From positions 1 through 40,456 of the forward strand of contig DSAP01000138.1 of NCBI GenBank assembly GCA_011046415.1: a stretch of DNA of 40,456 nt, read 5' to 3'. Under the pieces are notes generated by a model that was not told the origin of the DNA, ran no database searches, and saw only the letters and a list, made by a program, of their open reading frames with translations. Of the stretch, positions 29,284 through 40,428 are shown one piece after another. The translations under genes and the position numbers were made by a program. Within the stretch, counting starts at the first letter, position 1. The number at the start of each line of letters is the position of its first letter. Origin of the DNA: a bacterium (GTDB lineage Bacteria; Zhuqueibacterota; QNDG01; JABMRT01).

Positions 29284-29697
29284 TCACAAATCCGTCATCG
29301 TGTAGATCAGCCGGACAGGCTCTGATCCGGAAGGTTCCACGCCGACACAGCGGATTCGGAAGTTTCCTTCGTTATGTGTCAACCGGTTGATCAGGTCCCT
29401 TTCCTGACGATCGAGATTCAGCTCTTTTTTTTCACCGATTCGCAGTTTTCCACCCGCCGTGTTCTGGCTCGAAACGGTGATGCGTTTATCATTATTATTG
29501 CCGGTTTTCCAGTTCAGGGAGAATTCGTTCCTGTTCGTTTTCTCGGTTTCAATCACTGTCTCCGGTTTCACTTGTTCGACCATCAGTCGATTGGGACGCA
29601 TGATGCGGATGATTACATTGTGACTCGCAGAGGGACCGGCCGGCGCCGCCGTGGCGAAGGCGAGAAATACGGAAATGATCACGATTCTTTTTTTCAT
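29284..29697 (-). CDS. Small secreted protein of unknown function
   Basis: The 137-residue product has a clear signal peptide (KKRIVIISVFLAFATAAPA, then GPSA). The mature part of about 115 residues has no membrane segment, no repeat and a single cysteine; it contains IRIMRPNRLMVEQVKPETVI and a hydrophilic, beta-rich middle (NEFSLNWKTGNNNDKRITVSS). I do not recognise a family. AAGGAGG precedes the ATG at 29697. The gene is monocistronic by position and has a close match to a sigma-54 promoter directly upstream (29730-29744). It is divergent to the envelope locus that starts at 30230. Confidence 0.8.
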   Translation of the reverse strand: MKKRIVIISVFLAFATAAPAGPSASHNVIIRIMRPNRLMVEQVKPETVIETEKTNRNEFSLNWKTGNNNDKRITVSSQNTAGGKLRIGEKKELNLDRQERDLINRLTHNEGNFRIRCVGVEPSGSEPVRLIYTMTDL

Positions 29698-30125: not shown

Positions 30126-30272
30126 ATGGCTGCCGGACAGCATGCTGATCTTATCTATTCGTTTCATTATTTTCCAACCGGATTTTCATTTTTTTCTCTT
30201 CCTCTACAACGATCGGGTGAGAGGTTTCTATGGTACGATTCATACGCCGTGTTCATCGGATTTTCTTTTTAG
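30126..30272 (+). CDS. Possible leader ORF upstream of the VWA gene
   Basis: A 48-codon frame starts at an ATG seven bases after AGGGGG and ends 40 bases inside the VWA gene, in another frame. The product would be rich in Phe and Tyr, without a signal peptide. The strong ribosome-binding site and the overlap would allow translational coupling. It could also be chance. Confidence 0.3.
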   Translation: MAAGQHADLIYSFHYFPTGFSFFSLPLQRSGERFLWYDSYAVFIGFSF

Positions 30273-33200
30273 CCGGGGTTCTTTTTTTCTCCGGTCTTCA
30301 TCTTCTTCCGGCGGATAACAATCTGCGGGTGGAATTCGTGTTTACCTCCGTATCCGATACCACCCGAATCCGCGACCTGTCGGCCGGTTTCCCTGCGCCG
30401 GTCATGTCCCTGATTACGGTCCGGGATGAAAGAGGGCGTTACATTCACGGACTCGCCGATACGACCCGATGGCTGGGTCCTCACGACCGCAACGAGTCCG
30501 GCCGCCTCGTGGATTCGGCCTGGGCCGTGATCCATGAATACCATGAAGAAGATCCGTCCTATCCTCCGAATCCCGACGTCAAGGACATGGTTCCGCCCTA
30601 TTGGGTGACGGAAGTGCTCGACGTGGAAGGATACGGCCTTTCCGTGATGCTGACGATGGATTACAGCGGCAGCATGGGTGACGACATTTTCGTGGCCGAA
30701 GACGCTTCACGGACGTTTGTCCGGCAAATGAGTCCGAACGACGAGGCGGCGTTTATCAAATTCACCGGCAAGGTGAACCTGGTCCAGGAATTCACGCGGG
30801 ACACGACCAAGCTGATGGAGGCCGTGATGCGTCAGCCTGATGACCGTGATTTTACCGCCCTGTACGATGCGGTGTATTCTTCCGTAACCGAAGTGCTCCC
30901 GAGACAGGGCCGGCGTGTCGTCGTGGCCTACACGGACGGCAAGGACAACTATTCGAGCCACAGTGTCGAAGATGTGGTTACCCTGGCAAAAGACAATGAC
31001 ATTCCTGTCTACATGATCGGCCTGGGTCTTGACATCGAGCCGGATAAACTCGACCGGATCGCCTCGGAAACCGGAGGCGTCTTCTGGGCGGCGCCCACGG
31101 CGGAAGACCTGGCGGCGATCTATCTGGAAATTTTAAAGCTGATCCGGGGTTATTATGTGCTTGCCCATACGAGTACGGATCCCTGGAAGAACGGAACCTG
31201 GCGGATCGTCGACCTGTATCTTGATTCCGACGGGATGACAGGCTCAGGCAGGGGTCGGTATTTTGTCCCCTTCGTCCGGCCGAATTTGATGATCGAAAAA
31301 CAGGTCGTGACGGATTCGGTGAAGATTGCAGGACCGGTCACATTACCCTATGCGATGGCCGGAGATACCGTCCTTTACGAAGTACATATCACCAATACCG
31401 GACGGGGAGCGGCCCCGAATGTGCGCGTCGTCGATTTTCTCGCGGATTCCATGGATGTCATCACATACCTTGTCCCGCCGGACACTGTTTTCCCGGATTC
31501 TGCCGTCTGGCAGTTTATGCGTATCGAACCCGGAGAGCGGATTTCAATGCGTTATCTCGCGAGACTGCGATCCGTCATGCCGATGGGAGAAACACCCCTC
31601 GCCAGCCGTGCCAGGGTCTTCTGTGCGATCGATTCCGCCGGGACGGACAAGGAAGCCGGAGTCACCCTGTACGGACTGGGACTTCCCGATTTGACGGTCC
31701 GCTGTCTTCCTCCGGCCGCGGCGGCTTCCCCCGGATTCGCCTTTCCGCTTTCCGCGTGGATTTTCAACCTGGGAAACGCCCATGCCGTGAGGCCGTTCAC
31801 CGTGGGTTACTATTTATCCGATGAAAGCCGTTCCTTCGCGACCGATACCATCCCGCGCCTGATGATCGGCGATTCCGTCCTGACGGAAATTTTTCATGTT
31901 TTCCCCTCACCCGGAATTTATCGGGTGAGGGTGATCGCCGACGACGGACAGGTGATCGCTGAAATCCGCGAGGACAACAACATCGATTCCTGCCGGGTCG
32001 AGGCGGCCATCGATTCACTGTGGGCGCGGTTCAGTGATTATACCTATACAGAGACGATCCGGGATGTCCCCGGACGGTTCTATCAAACCATTTTCATGCG
32101 ACTGCAGGTCGGCGATCAGAATCATTTTCCCGTGCACGGACTGGCGAGCACGGACGCCTGGCTGGGGCCCGATGATCCCGCCGGGACAGGGCAGACCGTC
32201 TCGGCGCACTGGCGGGCACTGAGAGAGAGGCGCATGCATTCCCATGCGGACCCTGCGGATGTGCATCCCACCCTGCGGGTTACGGAGATCACGGAGGATC
32301 CCGTCTCCCTGCTTCTCGCCGTGGATTTCTCATCCGCATCCGCGGGATCTTCGGTGCCGCTCCGGACGGCCTGGAACACGGCCCTCGACGGATTCCGGGA
32401 AGCCGATGCCGCTGCGGTGTATGATCTCAACACCCGGGACGGACCGGTCCAGACGTGGACATCAGACCGGGATCCTCTGACCCTCGCGGTTGAGCGGACG
32501 TATGACGCACCCGGCCGTCCCCTCTACGATGCGCTTTCCCGTGCCGTGAATGCCGCCGCACTCCGAACAGGGCGCCAGGGTATCATCGCGATCCCGGGCG
32601 GCCCGGATGACGGCGGAGGCCGGTCGATGGCCTCGCTCGCCGATCAGGCGCGCGAATCGGGAGCACCGCTGTTTCTTATCGACCTCGCCGGAGGAAGCGA
32701 CAGCCTGAAGACCCTGGCCATCCGTTCCGGGGGGATGTATTTGCCCCTTTCCGGGAGCATGACTCTGGAGGCGGCATTCGACCGGATCCATCGTCAGCTT
32801 CGGAATTATTATGTCCTCTCTTTCGCGAGTCCGGATACGATTCAGGATCGAAGCCGGCGTGAAATCAGCCTGTCCCTGTCCGCATTCAATCATCATGCCG
32901 CCGACACGGGATTTTACCGGGCGCCGCTCGGACCGGCCGATCTTCGCATTCAAAAAACGGCGACCGGCCGAGTCCGGACCCTGTTCGCGGGAGATTCACT
33001 GTGGCAGGTCCAGGCAGGCGACAGCATCCATTACCGGCTTCTTGTCCGGAACGCCGGACATCAGGATGTCCATGATTTCGAAATCCGGGACAGGCTGCCC
33101 GGTAATCTCATCTATTCCCGTTCGAATCCCGTTCCCGTCCGGACGGCATCCGACACCGTGTTCTGGTCCATCCCGTCCCTCCCGATCGGCGGTACCCTCG

Positions 33201-34363
33201 ATGTGGCCTACACCTGTTTCGTGGATACGCTGACCGAAAACCGCACGACGCTACTCATCAACCGGGCGGAAATCCTGGCCGCCCTGGACACGATTCATCA
33301 TAACAATACGGCCAGCGACACCGTGCTCTACGTGCCGCTGGCCGCGGCGGAATTATCCGTCCGAAAAACCGCGACGGGCGATTCCCTGGCGGTTGCAGGC
33401 CGCGACACGCTCCGCTATATCCATGCCGGCGGGTTGATCCGGTACACCACCCGGGTCCGGAATTCCGGGGAACAGGCCTGTACGGCGATCCTGTTTGAGG
33501 ATGTTCTACCCGGATTTATAACGCTCGAAGACCCGCCTTCCGCCGGCCATTCGCTTTCCGGTGATACGCTCAGATGGACCTCGGGACGGCTTGAAAGCCG
33601 CGGCGGGACGGTTTCTTACACTTATACCTGTCGGGTGGATACGCTGCTTCCGCCCTGGTCCGTTCCCCTGGTAAATGTCGTTTCGGCGGCGTGTTCCGGG
33701 GATGAAAACAGCCTGAGAACAACAGATTCCGATACCGTCTGGACCGTGGGCTTGATGCCGCCTGATCCGGAAATCCGCGTCGCGCCGGCGCTGATTCAAC
33801 CGACCGATACGGTGCGGGTCGAGGTGTGGACACCCGTTCACGCCGTCGGCTGGGACCTTGTCCTCTTCTTCGAAGACGGCAGCCGGATCACGGATTACGC
33901 CGACGATTTCATCCGCCGGACGACGCTCACGCCGGGAAACTGGACGGCCGTGCATCCGGCATTCGGAGACACCCGCATGCGGACCGGGAATGAACAGGAA
34001 CGCGTGGGCGTGATATTCCAGACCGAAGACATCTGGGGGGTCGTGCGCGCGGACACCGCCTGGTTTGTCATCCAGAGTTCGGATGAATTCTATCTGGAAG
34101 AAAACCTGTTCAGGCCGGGTGCCGGTCCGCCTCAGGGGTTCCACTTCAAACTCAGTTCCAACCGGTGGGCGACCGTGACTGTCTATGATGTTTCCGGTGG
34201 ATTCGTCAGGAAGGTCGCAAGCGGTCCCTATCAGGCGGGATGGAACACCGAAATCTGGGACGGCCGGGATGAGTCCGGCAGGCAGGTGGGCAGCGGGCTG
34301 TATGTGGCGGTTCTGATTTCCGGGGCTTTCCGGGAAGCGCTCAAATTTATCCTGATTCGATAA
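30230..34363 (+). CDS. Giant secreted protein with two VWA units, CARDB, three DUF11 domains and FlgD-like C terminus
   Basis: The 1377-residue protein has a signal peptide (cleavage near A28). It then holds an N-domain plus VWA (about 30-330), a DUF11 domain (350-470), CARDB (484-590), a second N-domain plus VWA (600-890), two DUF11 domains (903-1030 and 1041-1165), and a C-terminal FlgD-like Ig fold (about 1300-1377, with WDGRDESGRQVGSGLYV). The first VWA has a complete metal site: D144, S146, S148, T209 and D236. The second has lost it. The ending resembles T9SS-type sorting domains, so surface display is likely. GAGAGG precedes the ATG. It is followed after 12 bases by the barrel-OmpA gene. 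Such VWA proteins bind ligands through a metal ion; the ligand here is unknown. Confidence 0.9.
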   Translation: MVRFIRRVHRIFFLAGVLFFSGLHLLPADNNLRVEFVFTSVSDTTRIRDLSAGFPAPVMSLITVRDERGRYIHGLADTTRWLGPHDRNESGRLVDSAWAVIHEYHEEDPSYPPNPDVKDMVPPYWVTEVLDVEGYGLSVMLTMDYSGSMGDDIFVAEDASRTFVRQMSPNDEAAFIKFTGKVNLVQEFTRDTTKLMEAVMRQPDDRDFTALYDAVYSSVTEVLPRQGRRVVVAYTDGKDNYSSHSVEDVVTLAKDNDIPVYMIGLGLDIEPDKLDRIASETGGVFWAAPTAEDLAAIYLEILKLIRGYYVLAHTSTDPWKNGTWRIVDLYLDSDGMTGSGRGRYFVPFVRPNLMIEKQVVTDSVKIAGPVTLPYAMAGDTVLYEVHITNTGRGAAPNVRVVDFLADSMDVITYLVPPDTVFPDSAVWQFMRIEPGERISMRYLARLRSVMPMGETPLASRARVFCAIDSAGTDKEAGVTLYGLGLPDLTVRCLPPAAAASPGFAFPLSAWIFNLGNAHAVRPFTVGYYLSDESRSFATDTIPRLMIGDSVLTEIFHVFPSPGIYRVRVIADDGQVIAEIREDNNIDSCRVEAAIDSLWARFSDYTYTETIRDVPGRFYQTIFMRLQVGDQNHFPVHGLASTDAWLGPDDPAGTGQTVSAHWRALRERRMHSHADPADVHPTLRVTEITEDPVSLLLAVDFSSASAGSSVPLRTAWNTALDGFREADAAAVYDLNTRDGPVQTWTSDRDPLTLAVERTYDAPGRPLYDALSRAVNAAALRTGRQGIIAIPGGPDDGGGRSMASLADQARESGAPLFLIDLAGGSDSLKTLAIRSGGMYLPLSGSMTLEAAFDRIHRQLRNYYVLSFASPDTIQDRSRREISLSLSAFNHHAADTGFYRAPLGPADLRIQKTATGRVRTLFAGDSLWQVQAGDSIHYRLLVRNAGHQDVHDFEIRDRLPGNLIYSRSNPVPVRTASDTVFWSIPSLPIGGTLDVAYTCFVDTLTENRTTLLINRAEILAALDTIHHNNTASDTVLYVPLAAAELSVRKTATGDSLAVAGRDTLRYIHAGGLIRYTTRVRNSGEQACTAILFEDVLPGFITLEDPPSAGHSLSGDTLRWTSGRLESRGGTVSYTYTCRVDTLLPPWSVPLVNVVSAACSGDENSLRTTDSDTVWTVGLMPPDPEIRVAPALIQPTDTVRVEVWTPVHAVGWDLVLFFEDGSRITDYADDFIRRTTLTPGNWTAVHPAFGDTRMRTGNEQERVGVIFQTEDIWGVVRADTAWFVIQSSDEFYLEENLFRPGAGPPQGFHFKLSSNRWATVTVYDVSGGFVRKVASGPYQAGWNTEIWDGRDESGRQVGSGLYVAVLISGAFREALKFILIR

Positions 34364-34375
34364 ATGAGGCCGGTC

Positions 34376-37303
34376 ATGATTAAACCGCGATTGAAATCCG
34401 TCATCCTGTTTCTGATGTTGTTTCCCGTCCTGCTTGCCGCGCAGGATCCTGTGGGACTTCCTTTCCTCAAGATCGGATCGGGGGCACGTCAGTCGGGCAT
34501 GGGCGGCGTGTTTTGCGGGGTGGGCGACGACATCCAGACACTGACCTGGAATCCGGGCGGGCTGGGGCATCTGCGGCGATGGCAGTGGTCTGCCACCTAC
34601 AACCGATGGTTCACGGATGTTTATCAAGCCGGCTTTTCCTACGCGGGACAGTTCCGGGCTGCAAAGAGCCGAAAATCCAGCATCGGTTTCTATCTGCACC
34701 ACATGGGAATGCCTGATTGGGATGCGACGGGGGGACGCCGTGAATCGGTGTCTGCCGGCCATCTGGTCGGCGGCCTGACAGTCGCGCAACGGTTCGATTA
34801 CCTCCATCCCGCGATCGCCGTGGGCATGACGATCAAGGGCATACACAGCCGTCTGGGAACTTATTCCGCATCCGGAATGGCCATGGACTGGGGTATTCTC
34901 ATCAAGCCGTCCCGTATCCGTCTGGGTGCGCTGGGGTTCGGGGTATTCGACTACGGGCTGTTTGCGTTCGGTGCATCGGTCTCGCATCTCGGACTCCGCA
35001 TGACCTTCGACAGGGAAGAGACGGCTCTTCCTCAAACCTGGCGCGTGGGTGCATCCTATTTCATGGGGCGGTATAACGGATGGAGTCTGCTTCTGGCCTC
35101 CGAAGTCGTCGGTGTGAAGCATCGCGATTTGATTTATGCACTGGGGGGTGAGGTATGGTGGCGTGATCTGCTCGGGGCTCGTTGCGGGTATCCGTTCAAC
35201 GGGGACGATCTCGAAGGGTTCAGTTTCGGATTCGGATTCCGCTGGAACGACGTATTCCGCAGCGCCATGGCCCTGCCGACACGTTTTGCCGATGCCTTCG
35301 AATTGAATTTCGGAGATGCAGGATACGGGGAGGTGCTCCAGCAGACCTATCGCGGCTCCGTCTCGCATTATTCCATTGCACCCGAACCGTTCTATATCGA
35401 AGAAGCCGAGGAGGTCCAACCGTGGATCGATTCCGGATCGATGACCATCCTGCCGCAAGGATCGATGGTCAGACTCACCTGGGAAGAATCCATCGATCCC
35501 GATCCTTTCGACGAGGTCAACTATCTCCTGATCATCGATAAAAGCGAGGCCCGGGTGAAACGGGCGATCCGGGAACTCGAACGGGACATGCCGCGGTTTC
35601 TGAAATCCGCCCTGTACGATTCTCTCGGTCTCGTCGAGGGTCAACCTGGCACCGAATACACCTTTGTCCCGACAGAAGGCGGAACCTATTACTGGGCGGT
35701 GGCGGCGCATGACCTGGCCTTCAATGCCCGGCTGGCGAAAAAAGGGAATCAACCTTTTGCGGAATTCATGGTCGCGGTGCCGGATCTGTCGGTCCGGGAG
35801 ATCGCCTTCGAACCCGGCCGATGGATTACCACCACACCCGAGCAGGGAGTCCTTTCGGTCCGAATCGGAAACGGCGGGACGGCTGCCACCGACACCTTTC
35901 GTCTGCTGATACGGGAAGGCCGGGATCCGGTTGATCCGGAGCCGCGCGTCCTGCTCGATGCGCATATCCCGTATCTCAGGCAGGGTACAGACACGCTGAT
36001 CGTCCTGGGATGGAATACGACCGCACGGGGCTGGCGCTTCATTACCGCGGTGGTCGATCCGGATTCTGCGATCGTGGAATTCGATGAAACCAACAATACG
36101 TTGACACGCCGGTTCATGACGATTCCCAAAGGCCGCATCGAGGCTTCGGATTCCGTCCAGGTTATGGCCACGGGATATGATTCGACCGAAATTTCCATTG
36201 TCCCCGAAATTTATTTTGACGCGCATTCTCCCGAAATAAAATCCGAATTCATCGGATCCCGGTTCGGGATACCCGGTGTCCTCTCGGTGCTCGGACAGCG
36301 GCTCAGGCAGCATCCGGAAGTCACGTTGCGTGTCCTGGGGTCCGTAGACATGATGAGTCAGGAGACGGATCCAAGCCTGGCTGATGCGCGCGCACGTGCG
36401 GTACGCGATACCCTGATCCGGATGGGTGTCTCTCCGTCCCAACTCGTCGTGATCTCGGATCATCCCAACCAGATTCTCGGAACGGTGAAGAGACCCCGGC
36501 CCCCGCAGGATGATGCGTGGGTGAGCCAGGAGAACCGTGTCGTTTCCTTTTCCGCAGACCGGGCGCATGAGGAGAAGCTGTTCAGTCCCATCCCCGTGGC
36601 CGTGGATACCACGCTGCGCGACAGCGTCCGCTTCGCGTTGCAGGTGGTGTCGCCCGGCGGCGTGGCGTCCTGGGAATTGGGAGGCAAGGAGAAATCGGTG
36701 TATATGGTCGATGCCGTCCCCTTCCGGAAAGACAGCCTCTGGCGGGAACTGTACTGGTACGGCACGGATCGCGAAAAGGTCATCGTACCGCGTGACCGCT
36801 GGTATGCCTTCCAGCTCATCCTGTCCGATACGCTCGGCCGGACTTTTTATACCCGCCCCGATTCGATTTTCCTCCAGGAAAAGAGCACCATCCGGCGGAA
36901 AGAAGTTTTCGGCGCGGCAAAATTTGCCAGGACCGAACCCGTCTTTCAATTCTACTGGGACCGCCTGATGAGGCTGGCCGAGGATCTTATCGACAATCCG
37001 CACATGCACATCCGGTTTGAGGGTCATGCCTGTGCGATCGGGCCTGAGGATGTCAACCTGCGGCTTTCGAAGCGGCGTGCGGACTATTTCACGAACGGAT
37101 TCCTCGATCGGCTCAGGAAAACCTACCCTTCCCATTATGAAGACATCCGGAGACGGATCGAAACGCCCACGGGTTACGGGGAACAGGATCCGCTGCGCAT
37201 CCGGTTCAGAGATGTCGGGGAAGTGCTTCTGGGAGACAATCAGTCTCCGGTCGGACGGTATCGAAACCGGCGGATTTCCGTCATGCTCTACCGGGAGAAC
37301 TGA
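34376..37303 (+). CDS. PorV-like outer-membrane barrel fused to CARDB and two OmpA-like domains
   Basis: About 975 residues with a signal peptide (cleavage near A22). Residues 25-325 match PorV/PorQ (UPF0164) barrels, opening with LKIGSGARQSGMGGVF and TLTWNPGGL. Then come a fibronectin-like stretch (340-465), CARDB (466-585, ending IVEFDETNNTL), an OmpA-like domain (602-728), a beta-sandwich stretch (736-838) and a second OmpA-like domain (844-975). The second keeps LRLSKRRADYF and NRRISVML but has Cys where OmpA has the peptidoglycan-binding Asp (GHAC for GHTD). The first keeps an Asp (GSVD) and the arginine helix. It should tie an outer-membrane barrel to the cell wall. ATG 34376 has GAGG six bases upstream; ATG 34364 directly follows the VWA stop and has none. 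Confidence 0.88.
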   Translation: MIKPRLKSVILFLMLFPVLLAAQDPVGLPFLKIGSGARQSGMGGVFCGVGDDIQTLTWNPGGLGHLRRWQWSATYNRWFTDVYQAGFSYAGQFRAAKSRKSSIGFYLHHMGMPDWDATGGRRESVSAGHLVGGLTVAQRFDYLHPAIAVGMTIKGIHSRLGTYSASGMAMDWGILIKPSRIRLGALGFGVFDYGLFAFGASVSHLGLRMTFDREETALPQTWRVGASYFMGRYNGWSLLLASEVVGVKHRDLIYALGGEVWWRDLLGARCGYPFNGDDLEGFSFGFGFRWNDVFRSAMALPTRFADAFELNFGDAGYGEVLQQTYRGSVSHYSIAPEPFYIEEAEEVQPWIDSGSMTILPQGSMVRLTWEESIDPDPFDEVNYLLIIDKSEARVKRAIRELERDMPRFLKSALYDSLGLVEGQPGTEYTFVPTEGGTYYWAVAAHDLAFNARLAKKGNQPFAEFMVAVPDLSVREIAFEPGRWITTTPEQGVLSVRIGNGGTAATDTFRLLIREGRDPVDPEPRVLLDAHIPYLRQGTDTLIVLGWNTTARGWRFITAVVDPDSAIVEFDETNNTLTRRFMTIPKGRIEASDSVQVMATGYDSTEISIVPEIYFDAHSPEIKSEFIGSRFGIPGVLSVLGQRLRQHPEVTLRVLGSVDMMSQETDPSLADARARAVRDTLIRMGVSPSQLVVISDHPNQILGTVKRPRPPQDDAWVSQENRVVSFSADRAHEEKLFSPIPVAVDTTLRDSVRFALQVVSPGGVASWELGGKEKSVYMVDAVPFRKDSLWRELYWYGTDREKVIVPRDRWYAFQLILSDTLGRTFYTRPDSIFLQEKSTIRRKEVFGAAKFARTEPVFQFYWDRLMRLAEDLIDNPHMHIRFEGHACAIGPEDVNLRLSKRRADYFTNGFLDRLRKTYPSHYEDIRRRIETPTGYGEQDPLRIRFRDVGEVLLGDNQSPVGRYRNRRISVMLYREN

Positions 37304-37316
37304 TTTCCTCCGATCA

Positions 37317-37332
37317 TGGCATGTTTTCTGCT
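37317..37332 (+). promoter_or_regulatory. Sigma-54-type promoter of the 37381 gene
   Basis: TGGCATG-TTTT-CTGCT matches TGGCACG-N4-TTGCW with two changes and keeps the invariant GG and GC at exact spacing. It begins 14 bases after the previous stop and its -12 lies about 50 bases before the ATG at 37381. Confidence 0.6.
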
Positions 37333-37380
37333 ATGAGTCCAGTGATATGAGAGCCGGGTGATGACAACGCGGAAAGGGAT

Positions 37381-37914
37381 ATGCGAAAGTTACTCGTTTT
37401 ACTTTTCATTTTTATTTTTTGTGGAACGCTGATCTCTGAAGATCGGATCGTAACCAAAGCCAGACAGGAATATCGCGGCAGGGTCGTCCGGGTCGTGAAA
37501 GAGAATTATGTCATCCGTCTGACGAACGGGAGTCTGATCGCCCTGCCCCAGTCCCAGATATCCAGGATTTACCGCGGCAATCGTCTCCTCGACTTTGAGG
37601 AGGGGATGAGTTACATCATCCAGAAGAAATATCCCTATCTGCCTTTCGGGGTTCTGACCATCGCAAGCGGGGCCTATGCGGTCAACCGGTATCAGGAATA
37701 CGAACGGCGGAAAGAAAGATTCAAGGAGGCGGATACCGGCGAACAGGACCTCCGGGACAACAGCGGAAACGCCCTCGCCGAGAGCGTGATTTTCGGCGTG
37801 GTCAGCCTGGGTGCCCTTTATGTGGCTTTTCGTCCGCTGGAGATTAAGGTGCCGGTCGGCAAGATCAATCTGAGTGCCGTTCCGGGTCAGGTGAGGTTGT
37901 CTCTCAATTTTTAA
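37381..37914 (+). CDS. Small exported or membrane protein, unknown function
   Basis: The 177-residue product starts with a hydrophobic signal (RKLLVLLFIFIFCGTLIS). It is followed by a small beta-rich domain (YRGRVVRVVKENYVIRLTNGSLIALPQSQISRIYRG, shown here in part) like those that read a residue-by-residue 'response to strand' fold in FCB lipoproteins. It has two weaker hydrophobic stretches (about residues 90-102 and 138-150). I do not recognise a family. AAAGGGAT precedes the ATG. It lies 77 bases after the barrel-OmpA gene and may have its own sigma-54 promoter. It probably serves the same envelope locus. Confidence 0.8.
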   Translation: MRKLLVLLFIFIFCGTLISEDRIVTKARQEYRGRVVRVVKENYVIRLTNGSLIALPQSQISRIYRGNRLLDFEEGMSYIIQKKYPYLPFGVLTIASGAYAVNRYQEYERRKERFKEADTGEQDLRDNSGNALAESVIFGVVSLGALYVAFRPLEIKVPVGKINLSAVPGQVRLSLNF

Positions 37915-38186: not shown

Positions 38187-38873
38187 ATGCCTTTTTTCTT
38201 CTATGATTCCACGATATGGCTGCTTATGCCCGCGGTGCTGCTCGCCCTGTGGGCGAATGCACGGGTCAAAAACACATTTCAAAAATACTCCAAGGTACCC
38301 GCATCTTCCGGTCTGACCGGAGCCGAGGTGGCCGGCAGGTTGCTGGGTGCGAGCGGCCTGGGGGACGTGCCTGTCGAGGCGGTGGGAGGGACTCTGTCCG
38401 ATCATTACGACCCGAAGGGACGGATCCTGCGTCTTTCCAACGGGGTCGCACGCGGCCGTTCCGTGGCGGCGGTCGGCGTGGCTGCCCATGAAGTCGGCCA
38501 TGCGATCCAGCATCAGCAGGCCTGGGGCGCGTTTCGGCTCCGGCAATCCCTTTTTCCCGCCGCCCATATCGGATCACGGCTGGCGTTTCCCTTGTTTATC
38601 GCCGGTCTGCTGTTTTCCATCCCCCCGTTGCTGGATGTCGGAATCATCCTGTTCAGCGCCGCAGTCGCTTTCCAGCTGGTGACCCTGCCCGTCGAACTGG
38701 ACGCCAGCCGTCGCGCCCTGGCACTTCTCGACACCCGGGGATTTCTGCACCAGGCGGAGGTCGGACAGGCGAGAAAGGTGCTGAGGGCCGCCGCCCTGAC
38801 TTACGTGGCTTCGACGGCCGTGGCCGTCATTCATCTGCTCAGGCTGGTGATCTTACGCGGTTCCAGGAGTTAG
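38187..38873 (+). CDS. Neutral zinc metallopeptidase, YugP type
   Basis: The 228-residue membrane protein carries the zinc site HEVGH at residues 101-105 (AAHEVGHAIQHQQAW) and the third ligand Glu170 in VELDASRRAL, as in the YugP/DUF2268-like neutral peptidase family. An N-terminal membrane helix (TIWLLMPAVLLALWANA), two helices near residues 130-165 and a final one place the active site at the membrane. Its substrate is unknown. AAAGGAG precedes the ATG at 38187. HtrA follows after 31 bases, so a protease pair acting at the membrane and in the periplasm is likely. Confidence 0.92.
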   Translation: MPFFFYDSTIWLLMPAVLLALWANARVKNTFQKYSKVPASSGLTGAEVAGRLLGASGLGDVPVEAVGGTLSDHYDPKGRILRLSNGVARGRSVAAVGVAAHEVGHAIQHQQAWGAFRLRQSLFPAAHIGSRLAFPLFIAGLLFSIPPLLDVGIILFSAAVAFQLVTLPVELDASRRALALLDTRGFLHQAEVGQARKVLRAAALTYVASTAVAVIHLLRLVILRGSRS

Positions 38874-38904
38874 AAACTTCCAAATTCTTCTGAGGAGGAA
38901 AACG

Positions 38905-40428
38905 ATGAAAATACAGAAAAACACATGGATGTCCGTCACCGGATTCGTTCTCATCGGCGTCGCCGTGGGGATCATTTTTGCCTCCAATATGCGCTGGGTG
39001 ACGCTCGGCAATGCGGCGCGCAGTGAATCGCCCGTGTTACTGGAGTCCCAAAGGGAGCCTTCCGAGACGCTGCTCCGGCTCCAGAACACTTCTCAGGCGT
39101 TCGTCGAGATCACGAAGGAAGTGCTCCCTTCCGTGGTGGCCATCTATTCCACCAAAGAGATCAGTCGTCCTTCACGTCAGGGCAGTCCCTTTCCTCCCTT
39201 CTTCGAGGAATGGTTCGGGAGGCGCTTCCAGGAGCCGACCGTACCTCAGCGTCAGACCGGACTCGGGTCGGGCGTCATCGTCAGCCGGGACGGATACATC
39301 CTCACCAACAATCACGTGGTGGAGGACGCCGACGAGATTCGGGTCGAACTGCATGACAACCGGCATTTCGACGCGAAAATCGTGGCCACCGATCCGCTGA
39401 CCGATGTGGCCGTGGTGAAGATCGAAGGACAGGACCTGCCGACCGCCCGTCTGGGGAATTCCGACGACATTCAGATCGGAGAGTGGGTGCTGGCGATGGG
39501 CAATCCACTCCGGCTCAATTCCACGGTCACGGCCGGGATCGTCAGCGCGCTGAACCGGAACATCGACATTCTGAGGGGGAGTACGGATTCCGGGAATTAT
39601 GAGATCGAGAATTTTATCCAGACCGATGCGGCGATCAACCGGGGCAACAGCGGCGGCGCGCTGGTCAACCTGCGCGGCGAGGTTGTCGGCATCAACACGG
39701 CCATTGCGTCCGGGAGCGGATTCTTTGCCGGCTACGGCTTCGCGATTCCCATCAATCTGGCCCGCAAAGTCATGGATGACCTGATCACGAAAGGGTATGT
39801 GACGCGCGCCTATCTGGGCATCGGGATGCTGCCGGTCGATGAGAACATCGCCCAGCGTTACGGCATGGAACATGTGCGGGGGGCGATTGTCGATCAGATC
39901 ATGCCCGAGAGTCCCGCGGGAAACGCCGGCCTGAGACGCCTCGACATCCTCATCGCGGTGGACGGAAAAGAGATCGTCCAGCCGAGTGACGTCCAGGGGC
40001 TGATCGCGCTGATGACCCCCGGAGACAAGGTGACGCTGACCATCCTGCGCGACGGTAAGCGCAGGGAGGTCGAAGTCAAACTCGGCCAGCGGGATACCGG
40101 GAAAGAGGCGCCGCCTGCCCGAGATGAGGGCGACGTCATTTCGAAACTCGGCCTCGAGGTGGAGAACCTTACCGACGAGATCCGGGGCCAGCTTGGTCTA
40201 GACAAGGACGCTCAGGGCGTGGTGGTAACCCGCGTCGAACCCTTCGGTGCGGCCTCGGATGCACGCATTTCCAGGGGCGATCTGATCACGGCTATCGAGG
40301 ACGTGAAAGTCAGGAATGTCTCGGAATATCGAAGCGCAATCCGGAAATTCGAGAAGGGCAAGGTCGTGATCTTCCATCTCAAACGCCGGGATACGGAGAC
40401 GGCGGCATTTGTGAAGCTGCCGCGGTGA
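38905..40428 (+). CDS. HtrA/DegP-family periplasmic serine protease
   Basis: The 507-residue protein has an N-terminal signal anchor (WMSVTGFVLIGVAVGIIFA), a trypsin-like domain with the triad His137 (TNNHVVEDA), Asp167 (DVAVVKI) and Ser249 (NRGNSGGAL), and two PDZ domains (about 305-395 and 415-500). The mature part contains the flexible LA loop near residues 85-115. It degrades or refolds damaged envelope proteins. GAGGAGG precedes the ATG at 38905. It is probably co-transcribed with the zinc peptidase. Members of the family are often under envelope-stress control; no such signal is visible in the 31-base gap. Confidence 0.95.
   Translation: MKIQKNTWMSVTGFVLIGVAVGIIFASNMRWVTLGNAARSESPVLLESQREPSETLLRLQNTSQAFVEITKEVLPSVVAIYSTKEISRPSRQGSPFPPFFEEWFGRRFQEPTVPQRQTGLGSGVIVSRDGYILTNNHVVEDADEIRVELHDNRHFDAKIVATDPLTDVAVVKIEGQDLPTARLGNSDDIQIGEWVLAMGNPLRLNSTVTAGIVSALNRNIDILRGSTDSGNYEIENFIQTDAAINRGNSGGALVNLRGEVVGINTAIASGSGFFAGYGFAIPINLARKVMDDLITKGYVTRAYLGIGMLPVDENIAQRYGMEHVRGAIVDQIMPESPAGNAGLRRLDILIAVDGKEIVQPSDVQGLIALMTPGDKVTLTILRDGKRREVEVKLGQRDTGKEAPPARDEGDVISKLGLEVENLTDEIRGQLGLDKDAQGVVVTRVEPFGAASDARISRGDLITAIEDVKVRNVSEYRSAIRKFEKGKVVIFHLKRRDTETAAFVKLPR

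What the first reader, a model, noticed from the sequence alone, without database searches (positions are those of the whole stretch)
30230..37914. Candidate undescribed envelope system: VWA/DUF11 giant, PorV-OmpA fusion and a small exported protein
Three adjacent plus-strand genes encode a secreted metal-ion-dependent binding protein with a sorting-like C terminus, a barrel-plus-cell-wall anchor, and a small exported protein. A lone secreted protein is divergent to them. PorV is the shuttle of the type 9 secretion system in Bacteroidota, so the barrel and its likely cargo would be encoded side by side. I know of no named system with this set.
Basis: inference. Interest (0 to 1): 0.7.

Follow-up and report, generated by a model that had tools for sequence, protein, structure and literature searches.

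The report
Cell-wall-tethered carrier paired with surface protein
A phylum of uncultured bacteria encodes, side by side, a large surface protein with an export tag and an outer-membrane barrel fused to a cell-wall anchor, which together look like a one-piece version of the carrier-and-anchor pairs that hold exported proteins on the surface of Bacteroidota.

Summary
The VWA giant (30230-34363) and the barrel-OmpA fusion (34364-37303) are an old linked pair: 71 of 82 genomes of the phylum match the fusion's profile, most full length, and 77 of 82 sampled fusion-type barrels, paralogues included, have a protein with the same export-type C-terminal domain (CTD) directly upstream. The constant parts are that CTD and the fusion; the VWA domain is optional, the small protein order-specific, the divergent gene family-specific. 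The barrel belongs to the broad PorV/PorQ family but is not PorV. The genome has SprA and PorU above curated cut-offs and a better PorV candidate elsewhere. In one genome outside the phylum the barrel and OmpA parts are separate neighbouring genes behind a CTD protein. Best reading: a type 9 cargo with a dedicated carrier fused to its own peptidoglycan anchor, a one-chain analogue of the PorP-PorE and SprF arrangements of Bacteroidota. Export route, CTD-barrel contact and wall binding are inferred, not shown. New variant of a known kind.

The parts
30230..34363 (+). Cargo: 1377 aa exported protein with VWA, CARDB, DUF11 repeats and C-terminal FlgD_ig domain
   Evidence: Pfam and NCBIfam matches; directly upstream of the fusion in nearly all relatives
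30632..31267 (+). First VWA domain (residues 135-346) with intact metal-site motif DxSxS, T, D
   Evidence: TIGR03436 136 bits; motif conserved in the order, absent in 10 of 25 orthologues
32048..32911 (+). Second VWA-like unit (residues 607-894), a degenerate tandem copy of the first
   Evidence: 27% identity to the first copy, E = 5e-25; metal-site residues lost by direct reading
34106..34360 (+). C-terminal domain (residues 1293-1377), FlgD_ig type, ending ...KFILIR; proposed export and binding signal
   Evidence: Most conserved part of the pair; G1345, G1354, G1356, Y1358 and K1372 invariant in 40 sequences; model without its own order scores it 82 bits against at most 51 for other CTDs of the genome
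34364..37303 (+). Carrier-anchor: 979 aa fusion of PorV/PorQ-family barrel, Ig-like/CARDB part and two OmpA domains
34454..35260 (+). PorV/PorQ-family beta-barrel (residues 31-299)
   Evidence: NF033709 112 bits, cut-off 90; match to PorV 6h3i_F
35780..36109 (+). CARDB domain (residues 473-582)
   Evidence: Pfam 33 bits, cut-off 23
36146..36457 (+). OmpA domain 1 (residues 595-698), D662 and R676 of the peptidoglycan-binding pair kept
   Evidence: D in 41 and R in 42 of 42 sequences; structures of OmpA-type lipoproteins match
36965..37288 (+). OmpA domain 2 (residues 868-975), R905 kept, C890 in place of the Asp
   Evidence: Cys in 36 and Asp in 5 of 41, Arg in 41 of 41; aligned to OmpA structure 3td3
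37381..37914 (+). Small exported protein (177 aa), follows the fusion only within the order; accessory at most
   Evidence: Present in all 9 order loci with room; N-terminal beta domain and two long helices in a low-confidence model; weak Lepto_7_Nterm match below cut-off

Best explanation
The two genes encode a cargo and its dedicated carrier-anchor. The cargo enters the periplasm by Sec, is exported through the SprA translocon of a type 9 system with its CTD as signal, and the CTD is then held by the outer loops of the downstream PorV/PorQ-family barrel. The C-terminal extension of the barrel (Ig-like, CARDB, OmpA, OmpA) reaches into the periplasm and grips peptidoglycan, so the surface protein, here a VWA/DUF11 binding rod, is fixed to the wall instead of being carried freely or linked to LPS. 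Shown: gene pairing, domain content, motif conservation, SprA and PorU in the genome, separate barrel and OmpA genes elsewhere. Inferred: export route, CTD-barrel contact, wall binding, ligand binding by VWA.
For: 71 of 82 phylum genomes match the fusion profile; 77 of 82 fusion-type barrels have a CTD protein directly upstream, paralogues included; the CTD is the most conserved part of the pair while the passenger varies; split CTD protein, barrel and OmpA genes in a row in G138; SprA 841 bits and PorU 844 bits in the genome and SprA in 82 of 82 phylum genomes; peptidoglycan-binding pair conserved in OmpA domain 1; invariant Lys near the CTD end, as in type A CTDs where it contacts PorV (PMC10994853); same gene order as SprB-SprF, where the downstream carrier is needed for export (PMC12618676).
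Against: No experiment and no usable structure model of the barrel or complex. The CTD falls below the curated type A cut-off (16 of 23 bits). OmpA domain 2 has mostly lost the Asp. Motor genes were not detected, though without a working control. Eleven phylum genomes lack a match to the fusion at 1e-40, so it is not essential everywhere.
Confidence: 0.6

Rival explanations
1. The fusion is a core structural part of this phylum's type 9 machine, the counterpart of PorP plus PorE that ties the machine to the wall, and the upstream protein is a cap on it, as proposed for PG1035.
For: Near phylum-wide presence; PorP not detected in the genome; PorE model touches the OmpA part; PG1035 is thought to cap PorP (PMC9143113).
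Against: SprA is in all 82 genomes but the fusion in 71; several genomes have two or three pairs with different passengers, which suits cargo-specific carriers better than one core part.
Confidence: 0.2
2. The fusion is a Pal/OmpA-like envelope stapler with no role for the cargo; the cargo is exported by the ordinary PorV on contig C88 and the genes are merely co-expressed.
For: OmpA domains and barrel alone would tie outer membrane to wall; a PorV candidate exists elsewhere; other CTD proteins of the genome have no adjacent barrel.
Against: Pairing persists in 77 of 82 barrels down to about 29% identity and in paralogues; the paired CTD is a distinct subclass; same pairing in split form outside the phylum.
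Confidence: 0.13
3. The pair is part of a surface motility or mechanosensing device in which the VWA rod is pulled against the wall anchor.
For: SprB-SprF, the gliding adhesin and its carrier, has the same gene order (PMC12618676); VWA metal site intact here.
Against: A carrier tethered to peptidoglycan suits a fixed, not a moving, protein (PMC9143113 makes this distinction for PorE); VWA is absent in many orthologues; no gliding gene was found (GldL negative but uncontrolled).
Confidence: 0.05

Closest known systems
PorE-PorP-PG1035 complex of Porphyromonas gingivalis (PMC9143113)
   Same: CTD surface protein, FadL-type outer-membrane barrel and OmpA-type peptidoglycan anchor acting together
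   Different: There three proteins, a PorP-family barrel and a type B CTD; here barrel and anchor are one chain, the barrel is of the PorV/PorQ family and the CTD is FlgD_ig (type A-like)
SprB-SprF and other type B cargo-carrier pairs of Flavobacterium johnsoniae (PMC12618676)
   Same: Large repetitive surface protein with a CTD, dedicated carrier encoded by the next gene, several pairs per genome
   Different: SprF is a PorP-family barrel without wall anchor; CTD type differs
PorV shuttle with type A CTD cargo (PMC10994853)
   Same: Same barrel superfamily; solved PorV is the best PDB match; near-terminal Lys conserved in the CTD
   Different: Fails the PorV and PorQ equivalog models and carries about 680 further residues with OmpA domains; dedicated to one neighbour
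OmpA/Pal-type peptidoglycan-binding outer-membrane proteins
   Same: OmpA domain with conserved Asp/Arg pair, barrel plus periplasmic domain
   Different: PorV-type barrel, two OmpA domains, CARDB linker, obligate upstream CTD partner

Membership tests
PorV equivalog (T9SS shuttle) | Score above the curated PorV model cut-off | tested here: not met
   30 bits against 250
PorV/PorQ family (broad) | Score above the curated family cut-off | tested here: met
   112 bits against 90
PorP/SprF family carrier | Match to the PorP family model TIGR03519 | tested here: inconclusive
   No hit to it for the fusion or in the genome, but the model had no working control
Type A CTD (TIGR04183) | Score above the curated cut-off | tested here: not met
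   16.1 bits against 23; FlgD_ig of the same general fold class is met, 29.9 against 27
Type 9 secretion system in this genome | SprA/Sov translocon | tested here: met
   841 bits against 200; 82 of 82 phylum genomes
Type 9 secretion system in this genome | PorU sortase | tested here: met
   844 bits against 420
Type 9 secretion system in this genome | GldL/PorL motor subunit | tested here: inconclusive
   No match, but no genome rang over the cut-off in the controls
Type 9 secretion system in this genome | GldK, GldM, GldN, PorT | not tested
   Not searched
OmpA-type peptidoglycan-binding domain | Conserved Asp and Arg that hold the peptide | tested here: met
   Domain 1: D 41 of 42, R 42 of 42; domain 2: R 41 of 41 but Cys for Asp in 36
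PorE-PorP-PG1035-like complex | Physical cargo-barrel-anchor complex | not testable with these tools
   Barrel and anchor are one chain here; cargo contact needs a complex model or pull-down

The most novel reading that the evidence does not exclude
A third class of type 9 carrier: type A-like CTDs with dedicated, non-shuttling PorV-family carriers built into the cell-wall anchor, evolved in a phylum outside Bacteroidota separately from the PorP/PorE solution and multiplied into several cargo-carrier pairs per genome.
Probability: 0.4. Interest if true: 0.75.

Novelty: new variant of a known kind. Interest (0 to 1): 0.57.

Why it matters
Reviews describe type 9 secretion as confined to Bacteroidota and know two fates for its cargo: PorV with release or LPS attachment, and PorP/SprF-type carriers with or without PorE. 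A phylum-wide pair in which one polypeptide is both carrier and wall anchor would show a third way to fix cargo on the surface, is a natural fusion that supports the proposed PorP-PorE link, and makes a compact test system: one CTD, one carrier, adjacent genes.

Tried and rejected
Filing the barrel as PorV: rejected on score. Treating VWA as the defining part: rejected, absent in 10 of 25 orthologues. Treating the small protein and the divergent gene as core: rejected, order- and family-restricted. Structure prediction of the barrel with the two sequences allowed gave pLDDT 36 and was not used; the small protein gave 54, with only its N-terminal beta domain usable; no fold search was run on these models. 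Naming the phylum failed: the only named relative is an unclassified Zodletone MAG record, and paper searches gave no name. Absence of PorP and GldL could not be established. Paper searches found no description of this fusion or pair, but the library holds open-access papers only.

Full report
What is there. The window is contig C15 of a 3.1 Mb, 92% complete genome. The 1377 aa protein has a hydrophobic signal-like N terminus (direct reading), a VWA domain of the TIGR03436 kind, CARDB, DUF11 repeats, a second VWA-like unit that is a degenerate tandem copy of the first (27% identity) and a C-terminal FlgD_ig domain. The 979 aa protein starts with a PorV/PorQ-family barrel (112 bits, cut-off 90), continues with CARDB and ends with two OmpA domains. 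A profile from 34 homologues finds solved PorV (6h3i_F, 1.1e-14) and many peptidoglycan-binding OmpA structures.

Is it more than chance? A search of all 82 held genomes of the phylum found long matches of the fusion in most. With the profile, 71 of 82 pass 1e-40, most over the full length, some as fragments or with a diverged second half, against 3 of 208 genomes outside the phylum, where only the barrel half matches. I fetched 80 neighbourhoods. Of 82 fusion-type barrel ORFs, 77 have a protein with the same kind of C-terminal domain directly upstream, mostly overlapping or within 20 bases; two are at contig edges, one (L053) is in fact paired but its start was called too far upstream, and two (L150, L164) are not directly paired. 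The CTD model was built from the first 40 pairs, so those are partly circular; the 40 later loci, many of them paralogues in the same genomes, were not in it, and 36 of them are paired. In the window's own genome 7 of 12 informative PorV-family genes have a CTD-type gene directly upstream (my count; two of these CTD calls are weak), and two other barrels there carry a TPR extension instead of OmpA. Pairing of cargo with a barrel that has a periplasmic extension looks like a general habit of this genome.

What is constant and what varies. Among 25 pairs the CTD is the most conserved part (45% mean identity), then the barrel half of the fusion (38%), then its OmpA half (33%). The first 360 residues of the cargo average 24%, because the VWA metal-site motif is missing in ten of them. 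Cargo of paralogous pairs are mostly DUF11/CARDB proteins with the same CTD. The paired CTD is a recognisable subclass: a model without the window's order scores the window's CTD at 82 bits and other CTDs of the genome at most 51. CTD and barrel distances correlate (r = 0.74), which linked inheritance alone would also give. The small protein follows the fusion only in the order (9 loci) and the divergent gene recurs in one same-family genome only.

The split form. In G138, a complete genome outside the phylum, locus L212 holds in order a CARDB/DUF11 protein with this CTD, a 478 aa barrel (PorV family, 147 bits) and, 13-16 bases further on, a separate exported OmpA protein. Parts that are separate genes in one lineage and fused in another support a functional contact of barrel and anchor. 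F. johnsoniae likewise has porP-like genes next to porE-like genes (PMC9143113).

Is there a type 9 system? SprA (841 bits) and PorU (844 bits) are clear in the genome; the best PorV candidate tested is on C88, just below its cut-off. SprA is found in 82 of 82 phylum genomes and in the outside genomes with related barrels. The motor subunit GldL and PorP were not seen, but these models had no working control here.

Mechanism. In Bacteroidota the CTD of type A cargo is wrapped by PorV loops within SprA, with an almost invariant Lys touching PorV (PMC10994853); type B cargo leaves with a dedicated PorP/SprF carrier, often encoded by the next gene (PMC12618676); and PorP with PorE links cargo to peptidoglycan (PMC9143113). 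The pair here has the gene order of the second case, a barrel of the first kind, and the anchor of the third in the same chain. OmpA domain 1 keeps the Asp/Arg pair of peptidoglycan binding; domain 2 keeps the Arg but has Cys for Asp in 36 of 41. I therefore favour a cargo held on the surface by a carrier that is itself tethered to the wall. Export, contact and wall binding are inferred.

Limits. The phylum could not be named from the tools. Structure prediction of the barrel failed with the only two sequences allowed. Absence from the literature rests on open-access papers only.

Noticed in passing
38187-40428: Downstream of the small protein a Zn_peptidase_2 gene (38187-38873) and an HtrA-type protease gene (38905-40428) follow the pair; in the same order the peptidase gene recurs in 6 and the protease gene in 7 relative loci, but not outside the order.
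   Followed up: partly
L001 / L181 (contig C27) and 82 phylum genomes: The type 9 translocon SprA is present in every held genome of this phylum, which is not Bacteroidota by its size here, although reviews call the system Bacteroidota-specific.
   Followed up: partly
L173:3237-5156 and L175:5602-7794: Two further barrels of the window's genome carry a C-terminal TPR extension and also follow CTD proteins (2301 aa in one case): possible further cargo-carrier pairs with another periplasmic domain.
   Followed up: partly
36965-37288 (fusion residue C890): In OmpA domain 2 the peptidoglycan-binding Asp is replaced by a conserved Cys in 36 of 41 sequences; meaning unknown, a disulphide or a different ligand is possible.
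   Followed up: no
29284-29697 (minus strand): The divergent secreted protein has no family match and was seen again only in one same-family genome, L052, also divergent to the pair.
   Followed up: partly
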